Assembly (NCBI GenBank): GCA_012842495.1
Contig: DUSS01000060.1
Coordinates: 1 to 64,000, forward strand
DNA: 64,000 nucleotides
Source: Candidatus Fermentithermobacillaceae bacterium
Lineage (GTDB): Bacteria > Bacillota > Sulfobacillia > Fermentithermobacillales > DUSS01
Reading direction: 5' to 3'
A program made the translations under genes and the position numbers. Of the stretch, positions 1 through 12,808 are shown piece by piece. Every line of letters starts with the position of its first letter. Within the stretch, counting starts at the first letter, position 1. The notes beneath the pieces are model-generated. The model was not told where the DNA came from. It saw nothing but the letters and a program-made list of their open reading frames with translations, and made no database searches.

Positions 1-890
1 CACTGCTGGCGCCGTGCCTGCTGTTCAGCCTTGGTCATCGCAGAAAGCCTCCCCGATTCACGCAAGTTCGGGGAGATTATCCTTCACTCCGCAACGCAAG
101 GCCAGGTGGGGGCAGTTTGACGCTTACAAAACTCCTCCTGAAAAGTCCGGTTCAGTCTCTCCACAGCGCCGTTCAGTTTCGGGGAACGCGGCGGCAACGT
201 GAAAAGCTTGATTACCAACTCCTTACGCGCTCGCTCGAAGTCTCCGGAAAACTCGCTCACGACGAATCTCAAACGGGCTCGCTCTGATGAGTTCCTCCAG
301 AAACTCCCTGGCTAAAGATGACGTCGCCGCGCTCCTCACGTCCGCGAACCCCCATTTCGATACTACATCTTCCGCAGTGAACTGCTTGAAGACATAGCCC
401 GGCTCCGGACGCACGTCCATTGTATCGACCTGCACCAGGTCCCCCGGTTCTTTCACCTCATAGTCCGGAGGCTTGCGTACGGCATAATAGCGCTTCCTCG
501 GAGTCCTCCTGACCTTGACCTTCTTCACCGGCTCCTTCAGCACTCCCCGTCGCTTGAGGTATGCAAGGATTCGCCCCACCGTGGACTCGGAAACCTCAAA
601 GCCTCGCTCCCTTACAAGCACCACAAGTTTCCCCTTGCCCCAGGCCGGGAACTCCTCCCTCAATCTCCTCACCGCTTCGGTGAGTTCCACCGACCATTTG
701 GGCTTGCGGACGTTCTTCGGCCTTCTGCTCCTGTTCTCCAGGCTTTTCAGGTTCCGCGGGTCGAATCTCTTCTTCCACCTGTAGTACGTGGACCGGGATA
801 CTCCGATCCGCCTGCGAAAGCACCTTCTCCCCCTGCCGGAACGTGAGTACGATGTAGCGCACATAACCTATGCCCGGAAACGGTTCCGGA
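1..890 (-). pseudogene. Broken IS481-like transposase
   Basis: On the minus strand the pieces of an IS481/IS3-type transposase can be read in more than one frame. Near 820-750 is a helix-turn-helix segment (VSRSTYYRWKKRF), then a DDE integrase core with VQVDTMDVR around 425 and FAEDVVSKWGF-like text around 360, and finally, in another frame, the C-terminal PRSPKLNGAVERLNRTFQEEF at about 200-100. Frameshifts near 815 and 275 and a stop near 84 separate the pieces, so no intact protein can be made. The start of the gene (around 890) abuts an IS256 remnant on the opposite strand, so one element was probably truncated by recombination with the other. Family assignment is by motif memory; the inactivation is directly visible. 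Confidence 0.75.
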
Positions 891-1680
891 ACCGGCCTCT
901 TGAAGGAGAGCATCCATACATATGGCTGGACGCAAAGGCGCTCAAGGCCCGCATGGATGACCGTGTGGTAAGCGTGGCCGCTGTAATTGCTGTTGGAGTG
1001 CGGGAGACGGGCGAGCGAGAAGTACTGGGGTTTGATGTGGGGGCGGCTGAGACCTACGAGTTCTGGCTGGAATTCCTGAGGGGTCTTGTAGCTCGAGGTC
1101 CAAGGGGGGTGAAATTGGTCATCTCCGATGCCACGAGGGGTTGAAGCGCGCCATCAGCGAGGTGCTGTCAGGGGCAAGTTGGCAGCGCTGCAGGGTACAT
1201 TTCATGCGTAACCTGCTTGCGCGGGTACCCAAGCACGCGCAGTCGGTGGTGGCGGGACTTGTTCGAACGATCTTCGCGCAACCGGACCAGGCGTCAGCCC
1301 GGCAGCAGTTAGAGCGGGTGGCGAGCAATCTTGAGCGTCGGTTTCCGCAGGCAGCCACCATGCTGCGCGATGCTGCCGACGAAGTGCTGACCTACATGGC
1401 GTTCCCGGAAGAACACCGGCGCCGGATACACTCCACCAATGTTTTGGAGCGTCTGAACCGGGAGTTGGGGCGGCGCTGCGACGTCGTGGGGATCTTCCGG
1501 ACGTGAGACCGGCTCTGCGCCTTCTTGGAGCAATACTGGAGGAGCAGCAGGACGAGTGGTTGGTGTCGCGGCGATACTTTAGCCATGAATCCATGTCGAA
1601 ACTTTACGCTGACGCGGAAGACACGAGTCAGCAGAGCGGTGATCTGACCGCCAGGACGGCAACAGCTGTCGCCAGTTAAC
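891..1680 (+). pseudogene. IS256-family (mutator) transposase remnant
   Basis: The reading begins abruptly with EGEHPYIWLDAKALKARM, an internal IS256 motif containing a catalytic Asp, continues through GVRETGEREVLGFDVG and VISDATRG, and then shifts frame at about 1135 where one base of the usual SDAHEGLKRAI motif is missing. The second frame (1141-1506) has RCRVHFMRNLLARVPK and the STNVLERLNRE signature with the catalytic Glu region. Another frameshift near 1500 leads to the C-terminal SRRYFSHESM text. The N-terminal third is absent. It is a dead fragment, joined head-on to the IS481-like remnant at about 890. Confidence 0.8.
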
Positions 1681-1708
1681 ACGCTCTGACCTGAAGGGAG
1701 GGCCAAAT

Positions 1709-1935
1709 TTGCACCTCTTGACGGGACGTGACCGAAAGGCAGTTGAGTTTCCGATCCCTGGAGAATGTCCTGCCCGCAGAAAGAAAGTGAACCTGAAACG
1801 CCATGGATGGTACCAAAGGTACGCAGTAAGACAGGATATCGAAGCACGCGTCTGGATTCCGAGGCTTCTGTGCCCTGCGTGCGGCAGGACCATTTCGATG
1901 CTTCCGTCGTTCTTCATCCCCCGGTTTCAGCGGAC
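1709..1935 (+). pseudogene. DUF6431-type zinc-ribbon protein, truncated
   Basis: About 75 codons resemble the small zinc-ribbon proteins (DUF6431) often encoded next to DDE/ExeA transposons: a half ribbon near KRHGWYQRY followed by CPACGRTISMLPSFFIPRF. The homology stops at about 1935, where sequence identical to the interior of the transposase element (compare 21410-21430) begins in another frame. The family usually continues past this point, so it has been cut. A role in target or transposase binding is an inference from association only. Confidence 0.5.
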
Positions 1936-2915
1936 GACGGGTCCTCCAGGGCAGCGTGGAGGACCGAGACGCGCCGGTAACGGTATTCTACGAATTTCTC
2001 GTGGAGCAAGGAATCTTCAAGGCGGAGGAAGTCTCCTACTCGAGCCTTTACCGGTTCCTCAGAACTCTGGGGCTCGCCGATCCCAAGCAGAGGGAGGAGC
2101 CGGAAAGAAAGAGATTCGTCTACGAAAAGGTCAACGCCATGTGGCAGGCGGACATCTCCTCGGGACCCTACATCAAGATGGGCAAAAAGGTGCCGACGTT
2201 ATTTGCCTTTCTCGACGACGCGTCAAGGCTCGTCCCCTACGCCCTGTACACCCTCGACCAGGGGTTTGATTCCCTCAAGACCGTCTTCAAGGAAGCGCTG
2301 TCCAGGCGAGGTATACCGCAGATAATCTACACCGACGACGGGAAGATCTACACAAGCCAGCAGTTCCAGTGGGTTTGCGCATCCTTGGGTATCGCTCTCG
2401 TCCACACAAAACCCTACGACGCTTCGGCCAAGGGGAAGATCGAGAGATTCTTCCTGTGAGTCAGGCAAAGGTTTCTTTCAACTCTCGATTACGAAGGACT
2501 GACCCTCGATTCCCTCAACCAGTCCTTCCTCGCCTGGCTCGAGAGGGATTACAACTTACGGCCCCACAGCGCCATCGGGATGTCCCCCATCGACATGTAC
2601 ATGCCTCAGTCGAGTTCCCTGAAAATGCTGCACGACCCGTCGATCCTGGAACCCCTCCTCCTTCGAAGAGAGATCCGCAAGGTGCGTCACGACTCCACGA
2701 TATCCGTGCAAAACCATGTCTTCGAAGTATCCCCTGTTCTCATCGGTAAAAGGGTCGAGGTCAGATTCGCCCCGGACGATTTGAGCGAAGTTCTAATCTA
2801 CGACGAAGGCGCGGAGGTAACCAGAACAAAGCCCGTAAGTCTCCACGAAAAGGCCATGGTCAAGAGGGAAAAGCTGGCTGTTCGCCTGTCTGAACTGGAT
2901 GCGGAGGAGGAATGA
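1936..2915 (+). pseudogene. DDE transposase of a transposase/ExeA element, 5'-deleted with an internal stop
   Basis: One frame from about 1956 to 2915 encodes an integrase-core transposase with a C-terminal Mu-type beta-barrel: VNAMWQADISSGPY (catalytic Asp), FLDDASRLVPYALY, IIYTDDGKIYTS (second Asp), SAKGKIERFF (Glu), and near the end HVFEVSPVLIGKRVEVRF. A TGA at 2457-2459 interrupts it just after the catalytic Glu and the same frame resumes immediately (VRQRFLSTLDYEGL). The N-terminus is lost: comparison with the second copy at 21348 shows a deletion joining LQGSVEDR directly to RDAPV. It lies 3 bp before the ATPase gene, as in intact two-gene elements. It could not make a full transposase without readthrough. 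Confidence 0.75.
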
Positions 2916-2918
2916 ATC

Positions 2919-3719
2919 ATGTACAGGGCATTCTACTCACTTTCTCAGGACCCGTTTACCAAGGACATCCGGCCTCAGTACCATTTCCCTTCAAGAGGGT
3001 TCAAAGAAGCCCTGGCCCGCATCAGGTACCTCATCGAAACAAGAGGCATTGGCGTGATTCTCGGTGAACCGGGCTGCGGAAAAACCTACGCCTTGAGGTC
3101 GGTCGCAGAAAGCCTCAATCCCTCCCTCTACAGGACAGCCTACTTATCCCTTTCTACGGGAACCACCATGGACATGTACAGGGCAATTGCAGCCGGTTTG
3201 GGAGAAGAGCCTCGCTTTCGGAAGGTAGACCTTTTTGGCCAGATCCAGAAGGCCGTCGGGCATCTGTACTATGACAAGAAGATTACCCCTGTCTTCATCA
3301 TGGACGAGATGCACATTGCTCGGTCAGAATTCCTCCTCGACCTGGCCATGATTTTCAACTTCTCCATGGACTCAAAAAACCCCTTCGTCCTCATTTTGTC
3401 GGGCCTGCCTTTCTTTCAATCCCGCCTAAGGCTCAACCAAGCTCAGCCCCTGGCCCAGCGCATCATCGTCCAGTACAAGTTCGAGCCCCTGGACAAAGAC
3501 GAGGTCAAGGGGTACCTCGACCACAGGCTCAGGCTTGTCGGTGCCGTGACACCCATCTTCACCGACCAGGCCATCGAAGCCATAGCTTCCCATACAGGTG
3601 GCTGGCCGAGACTCATCAACAACCTGGCATCTACAGCTCTTCTCTACGGCGCTCAACTAAAGAAAAACCCTATCGACGAGGACATTATTCGAATGGCCGC
3701 CGAAGAAACCAGCCTCTGA
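2919..3719 (+). CDS. ExeA-family AAA ATPase of a transposon
   Basis: A 266-aa AAA ATPase starting ATG after GAGGAGGAAT. It has Walker A GEPGCGKT (about residues 50-57), Walker B VFIMDEMH (about 127-134), a sensor-type LILSGLPFF segment and the C-terminal FTDQAIEAIASHTGGWPRLINNL typical of ExeA/TnsC/MuB-like helper ATPases. Proteins of this kind partner with DDE transposases to choose or protect target DNA. The gene itself looks intact, but its partner upstream is broken, so it is likely a relic that is still open. It is the last gene of the element; the right end must lie in the following 200-250 bp. Confidence 0.85.
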   Translation: MYRAFYSLSQDPFTKDIRPQYHFPSRGFKEALARIRYLIETRGIGVILGEPGCGKTYALRSVAESLNPSLYRTAYLSLSTGTTMDMYRAIAAGLGEEPRFRKVDLFGQIQKAVGHLYYDKKITPVFIMDEMHIARSEFLLDLAMIFNFSMDSKNPFVLILSGLPFFQSRLRLNQAQPLAQRIIVQYKFEPLDKDEVKGYLDHRLRLVGAVTPIFTDQAIEAIASHTGGWPRLINNLASTALLYGAQLKKNPIDEDIIRMAAEETSL

Positions 3720-4303
3720 GCCTATCTCAGGCGGCCACCTCTGCGGCCACTCCTCTTCGCGGGTCCGGTCGCCCCAGCCGGACCCCACTGTTTCATCCAG
3801 TCCAATTTGAAAAAGGCCCTCGCCACTACCACACGAGCGTGCAAAACTTCCCTCAGATCCCACCATCCAAAGTGGAAATGGCGAATTGCTGTGGCGTAAG
3901 ACGGCTATTACAGTGTGACAAACGGGGGCGGAGTTAATTCGCAAAATGACACCGGTACGAACCAGTAAGAGCAGGGACTTTTGACGACCAGACCAGGGCT
4001 CTCTATGCCTTCGTGTTTAGTTCGTTCTCGCTTAGGTGTGCCGGCGGCGTTCTAGCCGCGAGGGGTAGTGGCCGGGGTGAGCTTTTCTCGCGAGGCGCTG
4101 TTGGATACCCGGGCAACTCACAGTTGGTTCTCGAAGCAACTTTGCCATCCTGTCAGCTCCCTGCAAGCTGCAGTTTGCACCCACTATTTTTTATCAGCCT
4201 TACTATGCAAGGGAGGATCTGAGTCTCTGTCGTACAGTGTCGGAGCTCACCAGAGACTGACTCGAGAGTCATAGTTACTTGACCGTTCGGAGGAGGATTG
4301 GGG
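3720..4303. other. Intergenic region after IS element, no gene seen
   Basis: About 580 bp between the ExeA gene and the mini-CRISPR. Short open frames here lack ribosome sites and family features. The transposon right end probably falls around 3890-3950, but no terminal inverted repeat could be confirmed because the left end of this copy is deleted. Confidence 0.5.
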
Positions 4304-4334
4304 TTGAATTGCATCGAATTGCGTATAACATAAT
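4304..4334 (+). promoter_or_regulatory. Possible promoter of the mini-CRISPR RNA
   Basis: TTGAAT at 4304-4309 and CATAAT at 4329-4334 are 19 bases apart, with TATAAC at 4324-4329 as an alternative -10. Either would start transcription at about the first base of the upstream degenerate repeat. The match is weak. Confidence 0.3.
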
Positions 4335-4337
4335 GAT

Positions 4338-4446
4338 GATAGACGCCGGAGCCCGAGATAGAGGGTACTGAAATCGGAATTGGGTAGTGGAAGTCTTAAG
4401 TTTGCACCGACCGTTTCCCGATCTATAGGGGGCTTGGAACGGTCGG
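4338..4446 (+). ncRNA. Degenerate two-repeat mini-CRISPR (CreA/CreR-like RNA candidate)
   Basis: Positions 4338-4374 align without gaps to the 37-nt array repeat at 25 of 37 bases, 22 of the last 27, including CCCGAG, TAGAGGG and ACTGAAA. The stem pair at repeat positions 14 and 29 changes from C-G to a G-T wobble, so the hairpin survives. A second degenerate repeat starts at 4401 (TTTGCACCGA, then CCCGA and TAxAGGGG, with a two-base insertion) and sits in a longer hairpin, 4407-4415 pairing with 4438-4446. Between them is a 26-nt spacer, 4375-4400, beginning CGGAATTGGGTAGTGG. Its first 16 bases match 4854-4869 except at position 6, the base that type I Cascade flips out. Partial repeats around a short, partly matching spacer are what is known for CreA and CreR RNAs, which guide Cascade to a host promoter. 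Function here is inferred. Confidence 0.75.
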
Positions 4447-4818
4447 GTTGTGACGCATCATTTGATTGTCCGAGCTCATAAGCTGGGTGGGAGTGGGCTC
4501 GAAGTACTATGGATCGCAAGCTCTTTTGTCCCGCGGGCGCGGGCAGGGTGGCCTTAGCGTTAGAGGGAATTAGAGTACCAAGGGGTAGTCTATGTATTTG
4601 CGTTAGTTGCGGATGTAGCCTGTTACTTACAGGTGAATTGACCAATCGTGGACTTCTTTGCACCGAAACGCTCCTCAGACTAAGACAACGCGTAAGGTAG
4701 CCCCGGTTTGACAGATTAAGACGCGCCAGGAAAACCCGGTTTACTTTGAACGGTACCTACTATTGCCTTGCTGGTTGCTTAGTGACGCCTAGCGGGACCG
4801 ACTGTTGAGAGGAAACAC
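4447..4818. other. Intergenic region between mini-CRISPR and small ORF, nothing identified
   Basis: About 370 bp. Open frames such as the one starting at 4509 lack a ribosome site and family features. If the system contains a separate toxin RNA or mini-ORF it could lie here, but nothing specific can be supported. Confidence 0.4.
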
Positions 4819-4847
4819 TTGGCAAGCCGCTTTGGCTGTGATATGAT
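4819..4847 (+). promoter_or_regulatory. Strong sigma-A-type promoter of the 45-aa ORF
   Basis: TTGGCA at 4819-4824 and TATGAT at 4842-4847 each match five of six consensus bases and are exactly 17 bases apart. Transcription should start near 4853-4857, which coincides with the first base of the sequence matched by the mini-CRISPR spacer. Confidence 0.75.
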
Positions 4848-4850
4848 CAT

Positions 4851-4874
4851 CCCCGGAAGTGGGTAGTGGGAAGC
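4851..4874 (+). promoter_or_regulatory. Partial protospacer with CCC PAM targeted by the mini-CRISPR
   Basis: CCC at 4851-4853 stands in the PAM position on the 5' side of a sequence starting at 4854 that matches the spacer at 4375 in 15 of its first 16 bases. The single mismatch is at position 6; identity falls off after position 16. CCN PAMs are known for several type I-A and I-B systems. Incomplete matches of this kind allow Cascade binding without Cas3 cleavage in known CreA systems. The site directly follows the -10 box, so a bound complex should block initiation. Confidence 0.7.
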
Positions 4875-4895
4875 CAACCGGAAGGAGGTGAATCA

Positions 4896-5033
4896 ATGAG
4901 ACACTCACATTCCGAGGAATTGATCATATTCCGCGCGTCGATAACGACTCCAGATGGCCGGAAAATCTACGCAAAAGATTACGGGAAAAAGCCCTTTATA
5001 CTGCGAATTAAAAGAAGAGTGAAAACCCAGTAG
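4896..5033 (+). CDS. 45-aa basic small protein, candidate target gene of the mini-CRISPR
   Basis: ATG at 4896 follows AAGGAGGTGA with ideal spacing, and the stop is TAG at 5031-5033. The peptide is basic, with a central TPDGRKIYAKDYGKKPF and the ending RIKRRVKTQ. I have a general impression of similar 40-50-aa DGxxIYAxxYGKK proteins in Desulfotomaculum-type genomes but cannot name a family. It has its own strong promoter (4819-4847), and the mini-CRISPR spacer targets the transcription start. By analogy with CreTA it could be the toxin whose repression depends on Cascade; alternatively it is a leader peptide of the cas transcript, since cas3 starts 500 bp downstream on the same strand. Neither is proven. 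Confidence 0.7.
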   Translation: MRHSHSEELIIFRASITTPDGRKIYAKDYGKKPFILRIKRRVKTQ

Positions 5034-5535
5034 CATCGCTTTGGCTAGGTGCGGAGTTGGGCTTACTCCGCTTCGCGGCGCTGAAATCACTCCGGCAAAG
5101 GGGTGACCAGCTATAGTGTCATAAGTGTCGTATGAGCCTTCCCGAGCCAGGATAGCCGGGGCCCGTAAGGCAGCGATCTGTGGATTGTGAAATCATCAAG
5201 AGTTGGCCGGAATGATGTGTAGCGCGCTCACAAAAGGTCTGATCTAGTCCATAGAAATGGAAAACCATCCCTGAGGGTCATGGTCAAGCTACCGAAAACT
5301 GGCCAGGAATCACAATAGGGGAATTACAACACTTGCATAGAAGATGTAGCTTGTTTGATTAGATCCGCGGTATGGCAACAGGGTTCGCTCTACGGAAGGG
5401 TACTGTCGATGAATTCAGGCAGATGACGGGTTTCGAGAAGGCCGAGTATTTAGGTAGATTAGCGAATCGACCACCACGTTTGAAGTGGCCGATTGGAAAC
5501 GAGAAGACTCTCTGATATGCGTTCGGGGGTCGATC
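5034..5535. other. cas3 upstream region, with a possible 47-aa ORF at 5372-5515
   Basis: About 500 bp without a recognised gene. An ATG at 5372 opens a frame to 5515 that has protein-like composition (GTVDEFRQMTGFEKAEYLGR) but no ribosome site; it may be a remnant. No convincing promoter for cas3 was found, which leaves open that cas3 is transcribed from the targeted promoter at 4819-4847. Confidence 0.35.
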
Positions 5536-7911
5536 ATGAAACTCTTTCCTTTTCAACAGCGAACTCTCGAAGCTTTAAAAGGCGGCCGTAACGTGGTTCT
5601 GCGGGCACCCACGGGGGCAGGCAAAACTCGAGCTGCATTGGTTCCGTTCATTTACCATTCAGTATGGTCGACCCCGGAACGCTTTCCGAGTCAGTGTGTT
5701 TATTCGGTTCCCGTGCGGGTCCTGGCGAACCAGTTGGCAGCCGAGTACTACGAAGTCCTCATAGAGGCCGGGCTTCTAGGCCACCCAAAGTTGGGCAAAC
5801 GAGTAACGCTCCAGACCGGGGAACAGCCTGGCGATCCGATTTTTGAGGGCGACCTCGTCTTCACCACAATTGACCAAACCCTCAGCAGTTTGCTGGGGGT
5901 GCCCTACGCGTTGAGTCGTGGTCGGGCCAATCTGAACACAGGTGCAGTCGTCAGCTCCTATTTAGTGTTCGACGAATTCCATCTGTTCCCGCCCGACGGT
6001 GCGTTGAAGACCACCTTGCAAGTGTTGCGCCTGTTGAGGGATATAACACCTTTCGTGCTGATGACGGCGACTTTCTCGTCGACCATGCTCGAAGAGCTGA
6101 AAACAGTGCTAGCGGCTGAGGTGGTCAGCGTCGAGCCAGAGGAACTGTTGAAGATCCCTTCGCAGCAAGAGAAAGTTCGTCGCTTTCACGCGGTCAATGG
6201 TGTACTAACTGCTGAACAAGTTCTCGAGCGCCACGGTCAGCGCTCGATTGCGATCTGCAACACGGTGGAGCGGGCGCAGGAGCTATACAGCGAACTTCGC
6301 GACAAGGTCGGAGAGAACAGGGTAATGTTATTACACAGTCGTTTTACCAGTGAGGACCGGAAAGTTAAAGAAGATCAGGTGCGACGCGAGTTCGGCAAAG
6401 ATAAGGGATCTCGGTTAGCGAGGGATTTAATCCTGGTGGCCACTCAGGTGATTGAGGTCGGGCTCGATATCAGTTGCGAGGTTCTGCATACCGAGGTAGC
6501 TCCGGCAGCCAGCATTTTGCAGCGCGCTGGTCGATGTGCTCGTTTTGCCGGGGAGAAGGGGGATGTATACATTTACAACGTGCCGCCAGATAAACAGGGC
6601 AAGCCGAACTATGCTCCTTATGTCGGCAGGGGGGAACCAGAGCTCTGTCAGAGTTCATGGGTGGTTTTTTGTGAGCGGAATGGGACGATTCTGGACTTTT
6701 ATGGCGAACAAGAAGTAATCGACCGTGTACATACGCCGTTCGACCGGCAGTTACTAAAGGAGATGACTCAAGAAGAGGGCAAAATCTGGATGATGATGAC
6801 TCGAGCCTTGGGGCTGAGTGACCCCTCGGTTCGCCGGGAACTGATTCGCAAAGTGGACAATCGCACCCTTCTCGTACATGATGACCCAGGGAGCTTAGAG
6901 AACCCACTGGGTTGTAATGGCTTTTCGATGTGGCACGGTACGTTGCGTGGTAAACTGGAAGATTTGGAGATATGGCGTAAAGAAAAAGGACTGGACTGGG
7001 CCCTCAAGTATCCCGTAGAAACGGAGGAAGAGGAGGACGCCCGAGCCCCGGTGCGCTACAAGTGGGTACCGGTTCGTTCTGTCGAAGATATCGGAACATC
7101 CTTTCTCTTCGCCGTCCATCCCTCTTTGGTTACGTACGATAACTGCGTTGGCTTCCGTTTCACGCGAGATGGCGGAGGTTATCGTACACAGCCCAGTCAG
7201 CTGCGGGGGAAGGACCATGAGAGCTATACATACCGATTAGAGAGCTATGTTGAACATATCAGGGCTATGATGCAGGTCTATCGATCTGAATTGAGTAAAC
7301 GATTAGGCTACATTATAACTCGTCTGGAACAGAAGGCAGGTTTCCCGGCAGGAGGAATTGACCGGGCGATCCGCTTGGCGATTGCCCTACACGACTTGGG
7401 TAAGTTAAGCGAGCGGTGGCAAGATTGGGCGCGACGTTATCAGGCCAAAGTAGGAGAGCCACTTGAGGACGAGACCTTTATGATCGCTCACACTCACATG
7501 GAAACACCAGAACACCAGGCTGCAGTACGCAGGATCGGCGTCCGACGCCCACCCCACGCTGCAGAGGGAGCTATCGCTGGAGCTAAGATCGCTCATCATG
7601 TGCTCGAAGGCAACGAAGGACTTCGCCGGGCCGTGATCACAGCTGTGGCAAGGCATCACAGTGCTCAGGCAGAGACTTTTCAGGAATATCGGCTACTGAA
7701 TCAGGGTTACGCTGCCCTGAAAGAAGCGCTAGAGGCGGTGGGGCTAGATGGCAACGCAGCAGCAGAGTGGTTGCCTCAAACGCCAGCGACGCGATTGCAA
7801 AATCAGATGCTGCGTTTGCCCCCGGATGATCCATACACATGGTGGCTTGCTTATTTCCTCATAGTACGGACGTTAAGGTTATCAGATGGGAGAGCGCAGG
7901 AGGATGTGTAA
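5536..7911 (+). CDS. cas3: Cas3 helicase with C-terminal HD nuclease domain
   Basis: Effector nuclease-helicase of the type I system; it is recruited by Cascade to unwind and degrade target DNA. From ATG 5536 (after GGGGGT) it is 791 aa. The helicase comes first: APTGAGKT at residues 24-31, DEFH at about 146-149, TATFS near 177, and the motif VI region ILQRAGRCAR near 326. The HD nuclease follows at the C-terminus, with ALHDLGKLSERW placing the His-Asp pair at about 619-620 and later AxxRHHSAQ. Most Cas3 proteins carry HD at the N-terminus, so this order is noteworthy; it is best known in subtype I-G, but the neighbouring Cas7 is of the DevR/Cst2 type. A GTG at 5485 is an alternative start with no ribosome site. 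Confidence 0.92.
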   Translation: MKLFPFQQRTLEALKGGRNVVLRAPTGAGKTRAALVPFIYHSVWSTPERFPSQCVYSVPVRVLANQLAAEYYEVLIEAGLLGHPKLGKRVTLQTGEQPGDPIFEGDLVFTTIDQTLSSLLGVPYALSRGRANLNTGAVVSSYLVFDEFHLFPPDGALKTTLQVLRLLRDITPFVLMTATFSSTMLEELKTVLAAEVVSVEPEELLKIPSQQEKVRRFHAVNGVLTAEQVLERHGQRSIAICNTVERAQELYSELRDKVGENRVMLLHSRFTSEDRKVKEDQVRREFGKDKGSRLARDLILVATQVIEVGLDISCEVLHTEVAPAASILQRAGRCARFAGEKGDVYIYNVPPDKQGKPNYAPYVGRGEPELCQSSWVVFCERNGTILDFYGEQEVIDRVHTPFDRQLLKEMTQEEGKIWMMMTRALGLSDPSVRRELIRKVDNRTLLVHDDPGSLENPLGCNGFSMWHGTLRGKLEDLEIWRKEKGLDWALKYPVETEEEEDARAPVRYKWVPVRSVEDIGTSFLFAVHPSLVTYDNCVGFRFTRDGGGYRTQPSQLRGKDHESYTYRLESYVEHIRAMMQVYRSELSKRLGYIITRLEQKAGFPAGGIDRAIRLAIALHDLGKLSERWQDWARRYQAKVGEPLEDETFMIAHTHMETPEHQAAVRRIGVRRPPHAAEGAIAGAKIAHHVLEGNEGLRRAVITAVARHHSAQAETFQEYRLLNQGYAALKEALEAVGLDGNAAAEWLPQTPATRLQNQMLRLPPDDPYTWWLAYFLIVRTLRLSDGRAQEDV

Positions 7912-7988
7912 TTCTTTATTCCCGAGCAGTCCGCACACAGCAAGAACCATGTGGGCGGCTAAGAGTGAAACCGAGAGGGATGGATAAC

Positions 7989-9725
7989 ATGTATCAGCAA
8001 ACTTACTTTGTAGAAAAAAGTGCCGGCACTTTCTCGGATTCGTTGGCAACGTACGGATTGGCGGCGATTCTCGACGAAATCCTGGCCCAAGCTTTGGGAC
8101 GGGATAACCGGAGGAGAGTTTGGATCCGGGACATTGGGCCCTGCTACACCGTGACATTGGAACAGCCTTTAAGGGCTGAGTGGGTCGAGCAATGCAGCTA
8201 TTTTCCCGGTCCAGCTGCTTACGTGACGACCAGGAGGACTGAATCTCCGCCTGCAAATGTGAATGTGCGAGATGTGGATGAAACGTGGGAACAGTTTCGT
8301 ACTTACCAGGCAGCGCGAGAGAATCTTCGCCAAGTTTCTGATGCGAGCGATGACTTGAGGCGTGAGATTGAGGATGCGCAGCTGCCGCATGATTGGGCTG
8401 TAGTGACCTTGCTTGGTACGCAGCAGATGCAAGCGTTAGCAACGTATAACCAGGCTGTTGCTCAGTGGGCTCTTACGCGGGATCATTTCACCTTTAATCT
8501 ACAGACCATACTCCGCATGACTGCCGCACCCCACGTCGACCTGGAAGCTATTGTGCGCGATTGGCGTCGGACGGTAAGAGTGCCCGGGGTCAAGCACGAA
8601 TTGACGGCCATACAGCTATTGAATCCCCATCAGGGCAAGGGCCAGAATCGGACCAAGGCCAATGACCTGACCATGGTAAACGTGAGCGCGTTCTGGTTAC
8701 TGGAGTACCTGAAGGCTACCGGATTATGGCTGGCTGCTGCACCGCGTACTGTACGAAGTGACACCGATCGCAAGGTATACGTGCTCGCGCCCAAGGACAT
8801 TACCCTTTCTACGCATCGAGCGGTGTTTGAAACGTTCTCGACGAGGCTGTGGAATGAGACGGCTGTGAAGATGGACTGCATCGCAGCTTTGCTCTACACC
8901 GATGCATTGCTCGAACACAGTGAGGGCGCTCAATGTGATGAGTTGAATTTCGAGGGTTACGGGCCAGAGGATGTGGTGTCAGGTTTTTACGTTGTCCAGT
9001 ACAAACTCTTAAGTCGGAACGCGTACACGGCAATCAATCTGGCCTTTCTAGGGCTGCCAGAATGGACGGGAGAATCTCATTCCCGTCAAGACGTTCTCGA
9101 CTTGCGGAAAGTCATCCACGAACACCGGGAGGTGATTGAGAGGATTGAGGAAGCAAGGAGCGACGGGTACAACCTATTGCTCCGCTACAGAGATTTCGTA
9201 TCAGGACAGCGGTGGTACGACTTCTTTGAGTTTGCCTGCGGGTATGGCCAATACGCGATGAGTCGTCTGTCCAAGGGGCAACGGTGGGTTCCCCTGTTAA
9301 CTACCACATCTCTTAGGAGGTTGATTATGGCAACCAATAAACCTTTAGCGGCAATTGTTCAGGATCCCGGGTTTCAGAACGTGGCGTATGCGATACGCCA
9401 CAGCACGATCATCCCTCAGAGCCGTAAGGCGCGAGGTGAAAGCACTCTGTACGATATCCGCTACGGTCTAGGTATGGACCTGAAGCGCAAGGCCACGGTT
9501 CGAGACGACTTTATCGCTGCCCTCGCGGATTTCATGCAGAGCTACAACCAGGAGAACAGTCAAGTTCTAGAGAGCCGGAAACAACAGAAGAGACGTGATT
9601 TACGGTCGAGTGATGTGGAGGCTATAGTGCGCTTGGTGGACGAGTATGGGTCAGAAGTAGTGGCCAATCTGTTGGTGGCTTACGGGTACGCCCGTGAGCC
9701 GCGAGAGGACGCGGAGGCGGACTAG
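7989..9725 (+). CDS. cas8: Cas8-type large subunit of Cascade (Cmx1/Cst1-like)
   Basis: A 578-aa protein between cas3 and cas7, in the position of the large Cascade subunit that reads the PAM. The start at ATG 7989 lies 9 bases after GAGAGGGA. The C-terminal third (RDFVSGQRWYDFFEFACGYG, then AIRHSTIIPQSRKARG and LYDIRYGLGMDLKRKA) recalls Cas8a1/Cmx1 proteins of the Myxan/Tneap branches of type I-B. Identification rests on this remembered pattern, on size and on position. It overlaps nothing and is followed after 43 bp by cas7. Subtype assignment from this protein alone is not secure. Confidence 0.75.
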   Translation: MYQQTYFVEKSAGTFSDSLATYGLAAILDEILAQALGRDNRRRVWIRDIGPCYTVTLEQPLRAEWVEQCSYFPGPAAYVTTRRTESPPANVNVRDVDETWEQFRTYQAARENLRQVSDASDDLRREIEDAQLPHDWAVVTLLGTQQMQALATYNQAVAQWALTRDHFTFNLQTILRMTAAPHVDLEAIVRDWRRTVRVPGVKHELTAIQLLNPHQGKGQNRTKANDLTMVNVSAFWLLEYLKATGLWLAAAPRTVRSDTDRKVYVLAPKDITLSTHRAVFETFSTRLWNETAVKMDCIAALLYTDALLEHSEGAQCDELNFEGYGPEDVVSGFYVVQYKLLSRNAYTAINLAFLGLPEWTGESHSRQDVLDLRKVIHEHREVIERIEEARSDGYNLLLRYRDFVSGQRWYDFFEFACGYGQYAMSRLSKGQRWVPLLTTTSLRRLIMATNKPLAAIVQDPGFQNVAYAIRHSTIIPQSRKARGESTLYDIRYGLGMDLKRKATVRDDFIAALADFMQSYNQENSQVLESRKQQKRRDLRSSDVEAIVRLVDEYGSEVVANLLVAYGYAREPREDAEAD

Positions 9726-9768: not shown

Positions 9769-10743
9769 ATGGCAACTTCAGTTTATTCCCTTTCTATCTC
9801 CGGGCGTGTCATTTTGGACATGCACTCCCTGAACAATGAGGGAGGAGAGGGGAATCAAATAACAACGCGGATGGTTAATATCGTGTATAACGACCCCGAT
9901 ACCGGTGAACCCCGTTTAGCTTCTGTGAACGCCATTTCGGGCGATATGTTCAAGCACATTCAGGCGGAGCATCTGTACCTGAAAGCGAAGACCGATGGAT
10001 TGCCTTTGTGCGCTGGCTGCCAGGTGTTCAGCGCGAGCCGGGTGCTCAATGATGAAGAGTTTATGGGAAATCTTCCTCAACGGGACGCTGAAGTGATCGA
10101 CGCCTTGCTACGCCGGTGCGTCATAGACGACTTGGCGGGCAATTTGATTGCTAAAGAACCCCGTTCAATACCCCGCAAGAGTGTTGCAGAGTTTGCATGG
10201 GTGGTGGGGATACCCGAGGTGACTCGCACTGAGAGCTACTTCCATGTGCGCTACGCCGCCGAACGGGGTGAGAGAGTCGAAGGCGAAGAGCGGGTGACTC
10301 AACCTATCTTCCACCGGCCAGCTAGTTCGGGCGTATATGCGACGATAGCCACGTTTGAGATAGCGCGTATCGGATTCAATGATATAAGTCAGACCTACGC
10401 TATTGATCAAGGAGAACGGGAGCGGCGTTATAAAGCTCTGCTGGAGAGCGTGCTATACACGTTCTTAGAGCCCAACGGGGCTATGCGCGGCACACAGAAC
10501 CCACATATCCTCGGGTTTGAGGGAGCGGTAACAATTAGCACCCAGGTGGTACCGGCTCCCGCTCTCAGCCCGCTTGACGACGGCTACATAGACGAGCTCA
10601 AGCGGATAGCAGATGCCATGAACGGAGTGCGAAGCGGTGCTGTGCTAGTGCGCGAGTTTGATTCCATGGGTCGTTTTGCGGAGATCATGCGAGAACTCAT
10701 TGCCGAAACCAAGCCATATTCGCTCTTTGGCGATCGAGGGTGA
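9769..10743 (+). CDS. cas7: Cas7 backbone subunit, DevR/Cst2 family
   Basis: A 324-aa RAMP protein that would form the helical backbone of Cascade along the crRNA. The N-terminus VYSLSISGRVILDMHSLNNE followed by EGNQITTRMV and VNAISGDMFKHIQAEHLYL is diagnostic of the DevR/Cst2 branch of Cas7 found in type I-B and I-A systems. The start ATG 9769 follows AAGGAGGT with 7-base spacing. The stop is followed within 4 bases by the cas5 ATG, so the two are translationally coupled. Confidence 0.9.
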   Translation: MATSVYSLSISGRVILDMHSLNNEGGEGNQITTRMVNIVYNDPDTGEPRLASVNAISGDMFKHIQAEHLYLKAKTDGLPLCAGCQVFSASRVLNDEEFMGNLPQRDAEVIDALLRRCVIDDLAGNLIAKEPRSIPRKSVAEFAWVVGIPEVTRTESYFHVRYAAERGERVEGEERVTQPIFHRPASSGVYATIATFEIARIGFNDISQTYAIDQGERERRYKALLESVLYTFLEPNGAMRGTQNPHILGFEGAVTISTQVVPAPALSPLDDGYIDELKRIADAMNGVRSGAVLVREFDSMGRFAEIMRELIAETKPYSLFGDRG

Positions 10744-10747
10744 TCTC

Positions 10748-11464
10748 ATGTGGCTCATCGTTTACTACCGACCGGTGGGACTTTTTTCCCTCAAGGCGGG
10801 GGCAGCAACATCTACCGGAGCTAAGACTGTGTTCCTGCCCACGCCATTCGCTGTGCGCACGGCGATTCTAGATGCGTCCATCCGCACCCTGGGGGTTGAG
10901 ACGGCACCGGACGTATTCCAGATATTAAAAGCAGTCACCATTGCTGCACTTCCTCCAGAACACGTAGTCGTTACTAATCTGTTCACCAAGGTTCGCAAAC
11001 CGCGACGCCCCGAGGCGCAAAGTTTGGAGCCGATGCAACCCAGTATTTCGTTTCGGGAGTATGCTTACCTAAAGGGTGACTTGGGTTTGGCTTTTCAAGG
11101 TGAAGGCGCGGTTCTTGACCGATTAGATGTGCTACTTCCCCAAATCAATTACTTTGGTAAGCGGGGCAGTTTCTTCCAGTTGGTAGCTTTGCCAAAGCGA
11201 TCGACTGAATTACCGGAGGGATTTGTGGTATTAAGAGGGATATTCGTTAATGGCACCCACCTAACTTGGCAAGCAATGACTCCATGCAAACTCGGGCTCA
11301 TTCAGATGCTTGACGATTGGGGGCCGGACCTTACTTTCGAAAAGCTGAACGTTTACACCGACGATAGCATTCGTCTTGGTCGAGATCGAGTCCGCGAAAG
11401 CGTGATCCTGCCGTACAGCCTGGCACGGTCGAGCAGGAGTTTCAGCTACTACAAACGCATGTAG
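10748..11464 (+). CDS. cas5: Cas5 subunit of Cascade
   Basis: A 238-aa protein directly after cas7, with the ribosome site inside the end of cas7 (GAGGGTGA). Cas5 caps the 5' tag of the crRNA. The N-terminal LFSLKAGAATSTGAKTVFLP and FAVRTAILDASIR are compatible with a Cas5 RAMP fold, and the order cas8-cas7-cas5 is canonical. Similarity is distant, so the name depends mainly on position and size. With no Cas6 in view, this or an unlinked protein may be responsible for crRNA maturation. Confidence 0.75.
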   Translation: MWLIVYYRPVGLFSLKAGAATSTGAKTVFLPTPFAVRTAILDASIRTLGVETAPDVFQILKAVTIAALPPEHVVVTNLFTKVRKPRRPEAQSLEPMQPSISFREYAYLKGDLGLAFQGEGAVLDRLDVLLPQINYFGKRGSFFQLVALPKRSTELPEGFVVLRGIFVNGTHLTWQAMTPCKLGLIQMLDDWGPDLTFEKLNVYTDDSIRLGRDRVRESVILPYSLARSSRSFSYYKRM

Positions 11465-11806: not shown

Positions 11807-12808
11807 ATGCATCTAGTTGTTTCGGACTTTGGTGTCTTCATTGGGAAGAAGTCAGAACGGCTGACGATTTCGTCGAAAGGGAAGATAATCCAGGAAGTTC
11901 CGCTCAGGGACCTGGAGCAGGTGACCATCGCGTCACGAGGCGTTACAGTTTCCACCGACGCGCTGGCGAGCTGTATCGAGTTCGGGGTCCCCATGAACTT
12001 CCTTACAACCACCGGAAAGCCGTATGCCCTGGTTACATCCCCCGAACTTAACGGCACGGTCCAGACCAGACGAGAACAGCTCAAGGCGTATGACGACAAA
12101 CGCGGAGTCTACCTCGCACGATGTTTCGTCAAAGGCAAGATCGGAAACCAGGCCAGTCTCATCAAGTACTTCGCCAAACACAGAACGGGGGCCGAGTCTT
12201 ACCAGAAGATGATGGACGCCGCTTCCGAAATGGAAAAGCTCGAAAGGGAAGCGGACGAAATCGACGGAGATCACGTGGACCAGGTCAGGCCTTACCTGAT
12301 GAACCTCGAGGGACGAGCGGCGAGTTTGTACTGGGACATCGTTGGCCCTCTCGCCGCAGGCGACGAGTTCAAAGGCCGTGAGCACAGGGGCGCAACGGAC
12401 CCGTTTAACGCCTCTTTAAACTACGGGTACGGCATTCTCTACACGCAGGTTTGGGGTGCTCTGGTCCTCGCAGGTCTCGAGCCATTTGGTGGCTTCCTTC
12501 ATGTGGATAGGCCCGGCAAACCTAGCCTGGTCCTGGACATGGTCGAGGAATTCCGCGCGCCGGTCGTGGACCGCAGTATCATCGTGACCTTTATCAAAGG
12601 GTGGCGACCGGATTTCGATGAGGAGAGTGCCCTGACCCAGGAGTCCCGGCGTCACATTGCCGGTATTGTGCTCGAGCGACTCGAACTCCGGGACAGGTAT
12701 TCGGGCAAGAAGCAGAAACTGGAAGGTATAATCCTGGCTCAAGCGCGGCGCTTGGCCACTTATCTTCGGGGAGAGGGACAGTACAAGCCCTATTCGTTCA
12801 CGTGGTGA
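11807..12808 (+). CDS. cas1: Cas1 integrase
   Basis: Metal-dependent integrase that with Cas2 inserts new spacers at the leader end of the array. It is 333 aa, the usual length. The N-terminal beta domain (MHLVVSDFGVFIGKKSERL) precedes the catalytic helical domain with NLEGRAASLYW (Glu168), GFLHVDRPGKPS (His232) and LVLDMVEEFR (Asp244 and Glu247-248). The start ATG follows GGGGGTTGA. It begins a second block of cas genes (cas1-cas2-cas4-csa1) separated by about 340 bp from cas5, suggesting separate transcription of the adaptation module. Confidence 0.95.
   Translation: MHLVVSDFGVFIGKKSERLTISSKGKIIQEVPLRDLEQVTIASRGVTVSTDALASCIEFGVPMNFLTTTGKPYALVTSPELNGTVQTRREQLKAYDDKRGVYLARCFVKGKIGNQASLIKYFAKHRTGAESYQKMMDAASEMEKLEREADEIDGDHVDQVRPYLMNLEGRAASLYWDIVGPLAAGDEFKGREHRGATDPFNASLNYGYGILYTQVWGALVLAGLEPFGGFLHVDRPGKPSLVLDMVEEFRAPVVDRSIIVTFIKGWRPDFDEESALTQESRRHIAGIVLERLELRDRYSGKKQKLEGIILAQARRLATYLRGEGQYKPYSFTW

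What the first reader, a model, noticed from the sequence alone, without database searches (positions are those of the whole stretch)
4338..4446. Mini-CRISPR with degenerate repeats upstream of cas3, resembling a CreA/CreR guide RNA
Seen directly: 37 bases at 4338-4374 match the array repeat at 25 positions (22 of the last 27), with stem pairing kept by a wobble; a second degenerate repeat with the same TTGCA, CCCGA and AGGGG blocks begins at 4401; a 26-nt spacer lies between. The spacer starts CGGAATTGGGTAGTGG and matches 4854-4869 in 15 of 16 bases, the only mismatch being position 6, which type I Cascade does not pair. Known: CreA and CreR RNAs have partial repeats and short partial matches that lead Cascade to repress a promoter without cleavage. 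Inference: this is a new CreTA or cas-autorepression RNA for a Cas3-HD/DevR-type system.
Basis: partly seen in the sequence, partly recalled or inferred. Interest (0 to 1): 0.95.

Follow-up and report, generated by a model that had tools for sequence, protein, structure and literature searches.

The report
CRISPR-guided repressor RNA beside cas3
A decayed two-repeat mini-CRISPR next to a bacterial type I-A CRISPR-Cas operon very probably makes a guide RNA that parks the Cas complex on a neighbouring promoter to switch it off, and about fifteen loci in other genomes carry a similar arrangement, many of them in front of one previously unnamed small protein.

Summary
4338-4374 is a degenerate copy of the array repeat (25/37; 20/23 at the 3' end) and the only off-array match found in the genome. 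A weaker second repeat follows. The 26-nt spacer matches 4854-4869 at 15/16 bases, with the mismatch at position 6. The target has a CCC PAM and starts 6 nt after the -10 of a TTGGCA-N17-TATGAT promoter. That promoter precedes a 45-aa ORF with a very strong ribosome-binding site (4896-5033); cas3 lies 500 nt further on. The Cas genes are type I-A.

Comparison gives the strongest support. About fifteen loci in other genomes carry solitary degenerate repeats whose spacers match a CC-PAM site near a cas-operon promoter, with mismatches concentrated at positions 6 and 12 (16 of 24). Most are divergently oriented. About ten precede a shared, unannotated ~90-aa protein, in both type I-A and I-B loci; others precede an LPD3-domain gene, other small ORFs, or cas8 itself.

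This is a CreA/CreR-type guide RNA, with no earlier type I-A case in the literature I could read. Whether the repressed gene is a toxin (CreTA/CrePA-like) or repression serves cas autoregulation (CreR) is open. Transcription and repression are inferred, not shown.

The parts
4324..4334 (+). possible -10 region (TATAACATAAT) of the guide-RNA gene, just upstream of psiR1
   Evidence: sequence only; not found by the promoter scan; weak
4338..4374 (+). psiR1, first degenerate repeat; would give the 8-nt 5' handle ACUGAAAU
   Evidence: 25/37 to own array repeat against 22/37 to the other arrays of the genome; only off-array hit genome-wide; CM 22.9 bits; stem fold -9.3 kcal/mol, z -2.5
4375..4400 (+). 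guide (pseudo-spacer), 26 nt; first 16 nt match the target except position 6
4401..4440 (+). psiR2, second degenerate repeat (core 4417-4439)
   Evidence: 15/23 core match, local chance about 0.005
4407..4446 (+). hairpin CCGACCGTT...AACGGTCGG enclosing the psiR2 stem; possible 3' end of the RNA (compare the terminator around psiR2 in L107)
   Evidence: fold, though the whole 109 nt folds no better than shuffles (z -1.1); L107 sequence
4819..4847 (+). target promoter TTGGCA-N17-TATGAT with extended -10 (TG)
   Evidence: only promoter-like site on either strand of 3720-5600 (1.2 expected by chance, so its position relative to the match is what counts)
4851..4853 (+). PAM CCC
   Evidence: sequence; the well-supported relatives have CCN or NCC
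4854..4869 (+). target (protospacer) starting 6 nt after the -10, i.e. about +1
4896..5033 (+). 45-aa ORF with SD AAGGAGGTGA; first gene after the target promoter; AGA codons at 2, 40 and 41
   Evidence: sequence; small homologues elsewhere in the phylum; codon use
5536..7911 (+). cas3 (helicase-HD)
   Evidence: TIGR01587, Cas3_HD
7980..9305 (+). cas8a
   Evidence: PADLOC Cas8a E=7e-33; no Pfam or NCBIfam hit
9327..9725 (+). cas11a (small subunit)
   Evidence: PADLOC Cas8a C-terminal part E=2e-26 and Cas11a E=5e-5
9769..10743 (+). cas7a (DevR/Csa2)
10748..11464 (+). cas5a
   Evidence: PADLOC Cas5a E=5e-57
11807..12808 (+). cas1
   Evidence: TIGR00287, PF01867
13000..13287 (+). cas2 (start codon not settled)
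   Evidence: TIGR01573, PF09827
13241..13885 (+). cas4
   Evidence: TIGR00372
14111..15040 (+). csa1 (Cas4-like)
   Evidence: TIGR01896, PF06023
15695..20831 (+). CRISPR array, 71 repeats GTTGCAGYGAGAACCCCGAGGTAGAGGGGACTGAAAG

Best explanation
4338-4446 is a gene for a crRNA-like guide RNA of the CreA/CreR kind. Inferred working: the transcript is trimmed by Cas6 (encoded elsewhere in this genome, contig C6) at the degenerate repeats and loaded into the neighbouring type I-A Cascade. Its 16-nt seed match directs Cascade to the start of the promoter at 4819-4847. The match is too short for a full R-loop, so Cascade blocks transcription instead of triggering Cas3 cleavage. The promoter drives a 45-aa ORF and, as no terminator was found, perhaps cas3 and the genes beyond. 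When Cascade is lost, inhibited by an anti-CRISPR protein or busy with other crRNAs, the promoter is released. Shown: repeats, match, PAM-like triplet, promoter geometry and recurrence in other genomes. Inferred: transcription, processing, repression and purpose.
For: Genome-unique degenerate repeat and a spacer-target match beyond chance. The target sits 6 nt after the -10. In cas3-linked regions of other genomes plus the window, 7 of 32 ACTGAAA handles are followed by a sequence with a CC-PAM partner (>=13/14 outside positions 6 and 12), against 408 of 216,912 background positions; P=3e-13. A wider scan with the repeat profile gives 14 credible elements including the window; the reversed profile gives 142 candidates and 0 hits. 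With an unmasked criterion, 14 CC-PAM matches carry 24 mismatches, 16 of them at positions 6 or 12 (counted from the list), the bases that do not pair in type I targeting (PMC8501985). Targets mostly lie at TTGACA/TATNNT-like promoters. psiR2 is visible in the relatives.
Against: No transcript data. psiR2 is weak. The orientation and the 480-nt guide-target spacing differ from the relatives, which are mostly divergent with targets about 90-170 nt away. The nearest relative, with 72% identical Cas3 (Bu31, L036), has no such element. The second type I-A-like locus of the same genome has none either. The 45-aa ORF has homologues away from CRISPR.
Confidence: 0.86

Rival explanations
1. CreTA/CrePA-like purpose (a sub-reading of the best explanation): the repressed 45-aa ORF, or its mRNA, is toxic, so the cell depends on an intact Cascade and dies or stops growing when Cascade is lost or inhibited.
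For: In relatives the targeted promoter precedes small ORFs, several with strong ribosome-binding sites; one ~90-aa family recurs in type I-A and I-B loci together with the guide; one locus carries an LPD3-domain gene (L112). The window ORF has a 10-nt perfect SD (three occurrences of AAGGAGGTGA in 64 kb) and 3 AGA among 45 codons (P about 0.006), reminiscent of tRNA-sequestering CreT.
Against: No toxicity data. Homologues of the 45-aa ORF occur without any nearby mini-CRISPR. Two of the three AGA codons are at the 3' end.
Confidence: 0.42
2. CreR purpose (the other sub-reading): autorepression of the cas operon; the small ORF is a leader or bystander.
For: In most relatives the small ORF is followed closely by cas8; in L085 no small ORF was found and the target lies directly upstream of cas8. 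No terminator between 5033 and cas3. No WYL regulator was found upstream of cas3 in the window and Bu31, unlike most relatives.
Against: In the window cas3 starts 500 nt beyond the ORF; parts of 5150-5450 are conserved with Bu31, which lacks the module, so cas3 may have its own promoter. A small-protein family moving with its guide between CRISPR subtypes is not expected of pure autoregulation.
Confidence: 0.42
3. A decayed two-repeat CRISPR array remnant whose spacer happens to match a nearby promoter.
For: Degenerate repeats; psiR2 weak; no homologue in the nearest relative.
Against: The match begins exactly at the first base after the repeat, mismatches only at position 6, has the PAM-like triplet and starts 6 nt after a promoter; other loci repeat the pattern.
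Confidence: 0.07
4. A self-targeting spacer tolerated because the type I-A interference machinery is inactive.
For: A CCC PAM and a seed match in the own genome.
Against: Only 16 of 26 nt match, its repeats are decayed while the 71-repeat array is near-perfect, and the Cas genes are open.
Confidence: 0.04

Closest known systems
CreTA (type VIII toxin-antitoxin; CreA guide RNA; PMC8501985, PMC9458426)
   Same: Two divergent degenerate repeats; seed pairing at 1-5 and 7-11 with position 6 free; PAM; target in the promoter of a short ORF with a strong ribosome-binding site; lies beside the cas genes.
   [quoted passage not shown] here type I-A. Longer match (15/16). Toxicity untested; the ORF encodes a small protein with homologues. 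The guide gene lies upstream of its target gene.
CreR (cas-regulating RNA; Liu et al. 2023, as summarised in PMC13131331 and PMC12737573)
   Same: crRNA-like RNA from a mini-CRISPR with partial complementarity to a cas promoter.
   Different: Reported for types I-B, I-E and V-A in one review and for 'Type I' broadly in another; here I-A, with a small ORF between the target and cas3. The primary paper was not readable here.
CrePA (Shu et al. 2025, as summarised in PMC12737573)
   Same: Cascade-guided repression of a protein-coding gene; the window ORF and the L112 gene have matches (weak and significant, respectively) to phage protein families.
   Different: CreP typically carries a KilA-N domain; none found here.
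scaRNA-Cas9 of Francisella (named in PMC9458426; details from own knowledge)
   Same: Degenerate-repeat RNA with a short match used by a Cas effector for transcriptional repression.
   Different: Class 2 (Cas9), distant lipoprotein target.

Membership tests
CreA/CreR guide RNA (general) | one or two degenerate copies of the co-resident CRISPR repeat outside the array | tested here: met
   psiR1 25/37, unique genome-wide; psiR2 weaker
CreA/CreR guide RNA (general) | seed complementarity at spacer positions 1-5 and 7-11 with a PAM | tested here: met
   15/16, mismatch at 6, CCC; PAM supported by relatives, not by virus matches (no match)
CreA/CreR guide RNA (general) | target within a promoter linked to the cas locus | tested here: met
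   (promoter by consensus only)
CreA/CreR guide RNA (general) | transcribed and processed by Cas6 into a crRNA-like RNA | not testable with these tools
   needs small-RNA sequencing; a Cas6 gene is present at C6:27196
CreTA | repressed gene is toxic when released | not testable with these tools
   strong SD and AGA codons are only suggestive
CreR | repressed promoter drives cas genes | tested here: inconclusive
   45-aa ORF, then 500 nt to cas3; no terminator found
CrePA | CreP protein, typically with a KilA-N domain | tested here: not met
   no Pfam or NCBIfam hit for the 45-aa ORF
type I-A CRISPR-Cas | Cas8a, Cas5a, Cas7a (Csa2), Cas11a, Cas3, Csa1 | tested here: met
   PADLOC Cas8a 7e-33, Cas5a 5e-57, Cas7a 1e-32, Cas11a 5e-5; Csa1

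The most novel reading that the evidence does not exclude
Bacterial type I-A (and some I-B) systems carry a recurring Cascade-repressed small-protein module: a degenerate mini-CRISPR plus the promoter of a small protein, including a new ~90-aa family (ten to eleven loci) that travels between CRISPR subtypes with its guide. It acts as a protein toxin or alarm released when Cascade fails and at the same time derepresses the Cascade operon.
Probability: 0.4. Interest if true: 0.88.

Novelty: new variant of a known kind. Interest (0 to 1): 0.77.

Why it matters
If right, guide-RNA repression by Cascade, known in a few CRISPR subtypes, extends to type I-A and recurs in its bacterial branch. The small proteins behind these guides become a list of candidate protein toxins or immune alarms that can be tested one by one. 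The convergence of guides onto promoter starts, with mismatches at positions 6 and 12, also gives sequence-only evidence that this type I-A branch uses a CC-type PAM.

Tried and rejected
Decayed-array remnant: unlikely. A homologous element upstream of cas3 in the nearest relatives: Bu31 and Ammonifex do not have this one; Ammonifex has a lone repeat upstream of cas6 but no target was found. A mini-CRISPR in the second type I-A-like locus of the same genome: none. PAM from phage matches of the array spacers: no match. Structure of the ~90-aa family: moderate model (pLDDT 79), no significant PDB match, best an XPB structure at E=0.09. The concentration of mismatches at 6 and 12 was first seen with a search that ignores those positions, so it was recounted with an unmasked search. 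Searches failed on wrong coordinates of mine; replace the first four, and the NCBIfam scan was not repeated.

Full report
What is there. The window carries a type I-A CRISPR-Cas locus: cas3 (5536), cas8a, cas11a, cas7a, cas5a, cas1, cas2, cas4, csa1 and a 71-repeat array. Cas6 is elsewhere in the genome (C6:27196). Between an ORF ending at 3719 and cas3 lies 1.8 kb with no other recognised gene. In it, 4338-4374 is a degenerate copy of the array repeat. It matches at 25/37 positions, keeps the stem (GCCC/GGGU) and the handle ACTGAAA, and is the best off-array match in the window and the only one in the genome at the tested stringency. A 26-nt spacer and a weaker second repeat follow (core 4417-4439, 15/23, local chance about 0.005), the latter inside a hairpin.

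The target. The first 16 spacer bases match 4854-4869 except at position 6. In the 1.8-kb region this is the only 14/14 pair outside positions 6 and 12, and 0 of 5000 shuffled spacers do as well. The site is preceded by CCC and starts 6 nt after the -10 of TTGGCA-N17-TATGAT, the only promoter-like site on either strand there. A promoter-like site alone is expected by chance about once in such a region; its position relative to the match is what counts. Next comes a 45-aa ORF (4896-5033) with a 10-nt Shine-Dalgarno match (AAGGAGGTGA, three occurrences in 64 kb).

Relatives. A scan for cas3 relatives gave 79 loci from public genomes; 57 of 396 genomes of one class have a related cas8. A profile of the repeat 3' half built from 18 repeats found solitary degenerate repeats beside cas genes. 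Well-supported cases with a CC PAM and at least 13/14 matches outside positions 6 and 12 are L069, L075, L081, L083, L085, L091, L107, L185, L189, L231, L234 (=L135), L235 (=L133) and the window. L100 (12/14), L112 (different repeat type), L134 (degenerate handle, CTC PAM) and L071 (8 of 9 seed bases) are further likely ones. They lie in enlarged cas3-cas8 gaps or upstream of cas operons, mostly on the strand opposite to the cas genes, with a second repeat visible downstream. The target usually starts 1-24 nt after the -10 of a TTGACA-like/TATNNT promoter on the cas strand. L235 (upstream of the -35) and L231 (overlapping the -10) differ, and for L189 and L091 the scan placed no such cas-strand promoter.

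Statistics. In cas3-linked regions, 7 of 32 handles against 408 of 216,912 positions have a CC-PAM partner, P=3e-13 (related loci are not fully independent, and the window itself is one of the seven). The reversed profile gives no hit. With an unmasked 13/16 criterion, the 14 CC-PAM pairs carry 24 mismatches, 16 at positions 6 or 12 (my count from the list; the printed test there pools CC-PAM and other pairs, 22 of 57). One of the 14 (L090) is probably chance. Published work shows that CreA needs positions 1-5 and 7-11 but not 6 and 12 (PMC8501985).

What is repressed. In L107, L069, L100, L063, L091, L081, L133, L134, L135 and L231 the ORF after the target belongs to one ~90-aa family (A5). 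The members tested have no credible Pfam or PHROG hit. L232 is a weaker member without a detected guide, and in L063 the guide-target match is poor. L231 lies beside a Cas8 that is type I-B by PADLOC (Cas8b E=2e-212); the Cas8 next to L133 and L135 looks the same by eye but was not scanned. So guide and small gene occur together in two CRISPR subtypes, which fits a module better than plain autoregulation. In 396 and 400 genomes searched, the family was found at few other places. L112 has an LPD3-domain ORF (E=2e-19). L083, L071, L185 and L073 have other small ORFs. L085 has none and is a plain CreR layout. The small gene is usually close upstream of cas8, so repression could act on both.

The window's own ORF is different. 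Small homologues (up to 58% identity over 33 aa) occur in other genomes of the phylum, without a nearby mini-CRISPR; some neighbours look like mobile-element genes, by reading only. It is therefore probably a real small protein but not dedicated to CRISPR. AGA codons are over-represented (3/45, P about 0.006), which recalls CreT, but weakly.

Mechanism. Most likely a guide-loaded Cascade binds at the promoter start and represses transcription; Best explanation marks what is shown and what is inferred. I cannot decide between a toxin-type (CreTA/CrePA-like) and an autoregulatory (CreR) role for this window; the two are not exclusive, so their confidences are sub-readings of the best explanation.

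Novelty. The reviews I could read list CreR in types I-B, I-E and V-A, or 'Type I' broadly, and CreTA in I-B and perhaps others. None of the passages read names type I-A. The primary CreR and CrePA papers were not available, so an I-A case there cannot be excluded. I call it a new variant of a known kind.

Noticed in passing
L107:2816-3091; L069:7507-7779; L100:5973-6239; L091:4930-5217; L133:1462-1719; L134:1501-1749; L135:1498-1770; L081:12622-12870; L063:6016-6297; L231:3738-3980 (-): Unannotated ~90-aa protein family behind guide-targeted promoters in type I-A and I-B loci; moderate-confidence model, weak resemblance to part of archaeal XPB.
   Followed up: partly
L112:3884-4288: LPD3-domain (PF18798) ORF in a cas3-cas8 gap of a Chlorobiota genome, with a guide-like match (mismatch at position 6 only, CCA PAM) 72 nt away.
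   Followed up: partly
L034:5035-5071: Solitary near-intact repeat directly upstream of the cas6-WYL-cas3 genes of Ammonifex thiophilus; no target found. Might be a Cas6 site in the operon leader.
   Followed up: partly
L123 (G000:C25:58000-77999): Second type I-A-like locus in the same genome with a 37-repeat array; its cas1 reading frame looks broken. No mini-CRISPR found upstream of its cas3.
   Followed up: partly
window 5150-5450: Patches conserved with Bu31 (L036) upstream of cas3, not clearly coding; may hold the basic cas3 promoter or be gene remnants.
   Followed up: partly
L034, L035 and most of L037-L104: Most relatives have a WYL-domain-type regulator gene directly upstream of cas3; none was found there in the window and Bu31.
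   Followed up: partly
window 1-3719: Stretch of transposase-like ORFs, some interrupted (for example a stop at 2457-2459), and an ATPase-like ORF at 2919-3719.
   Followed up: no
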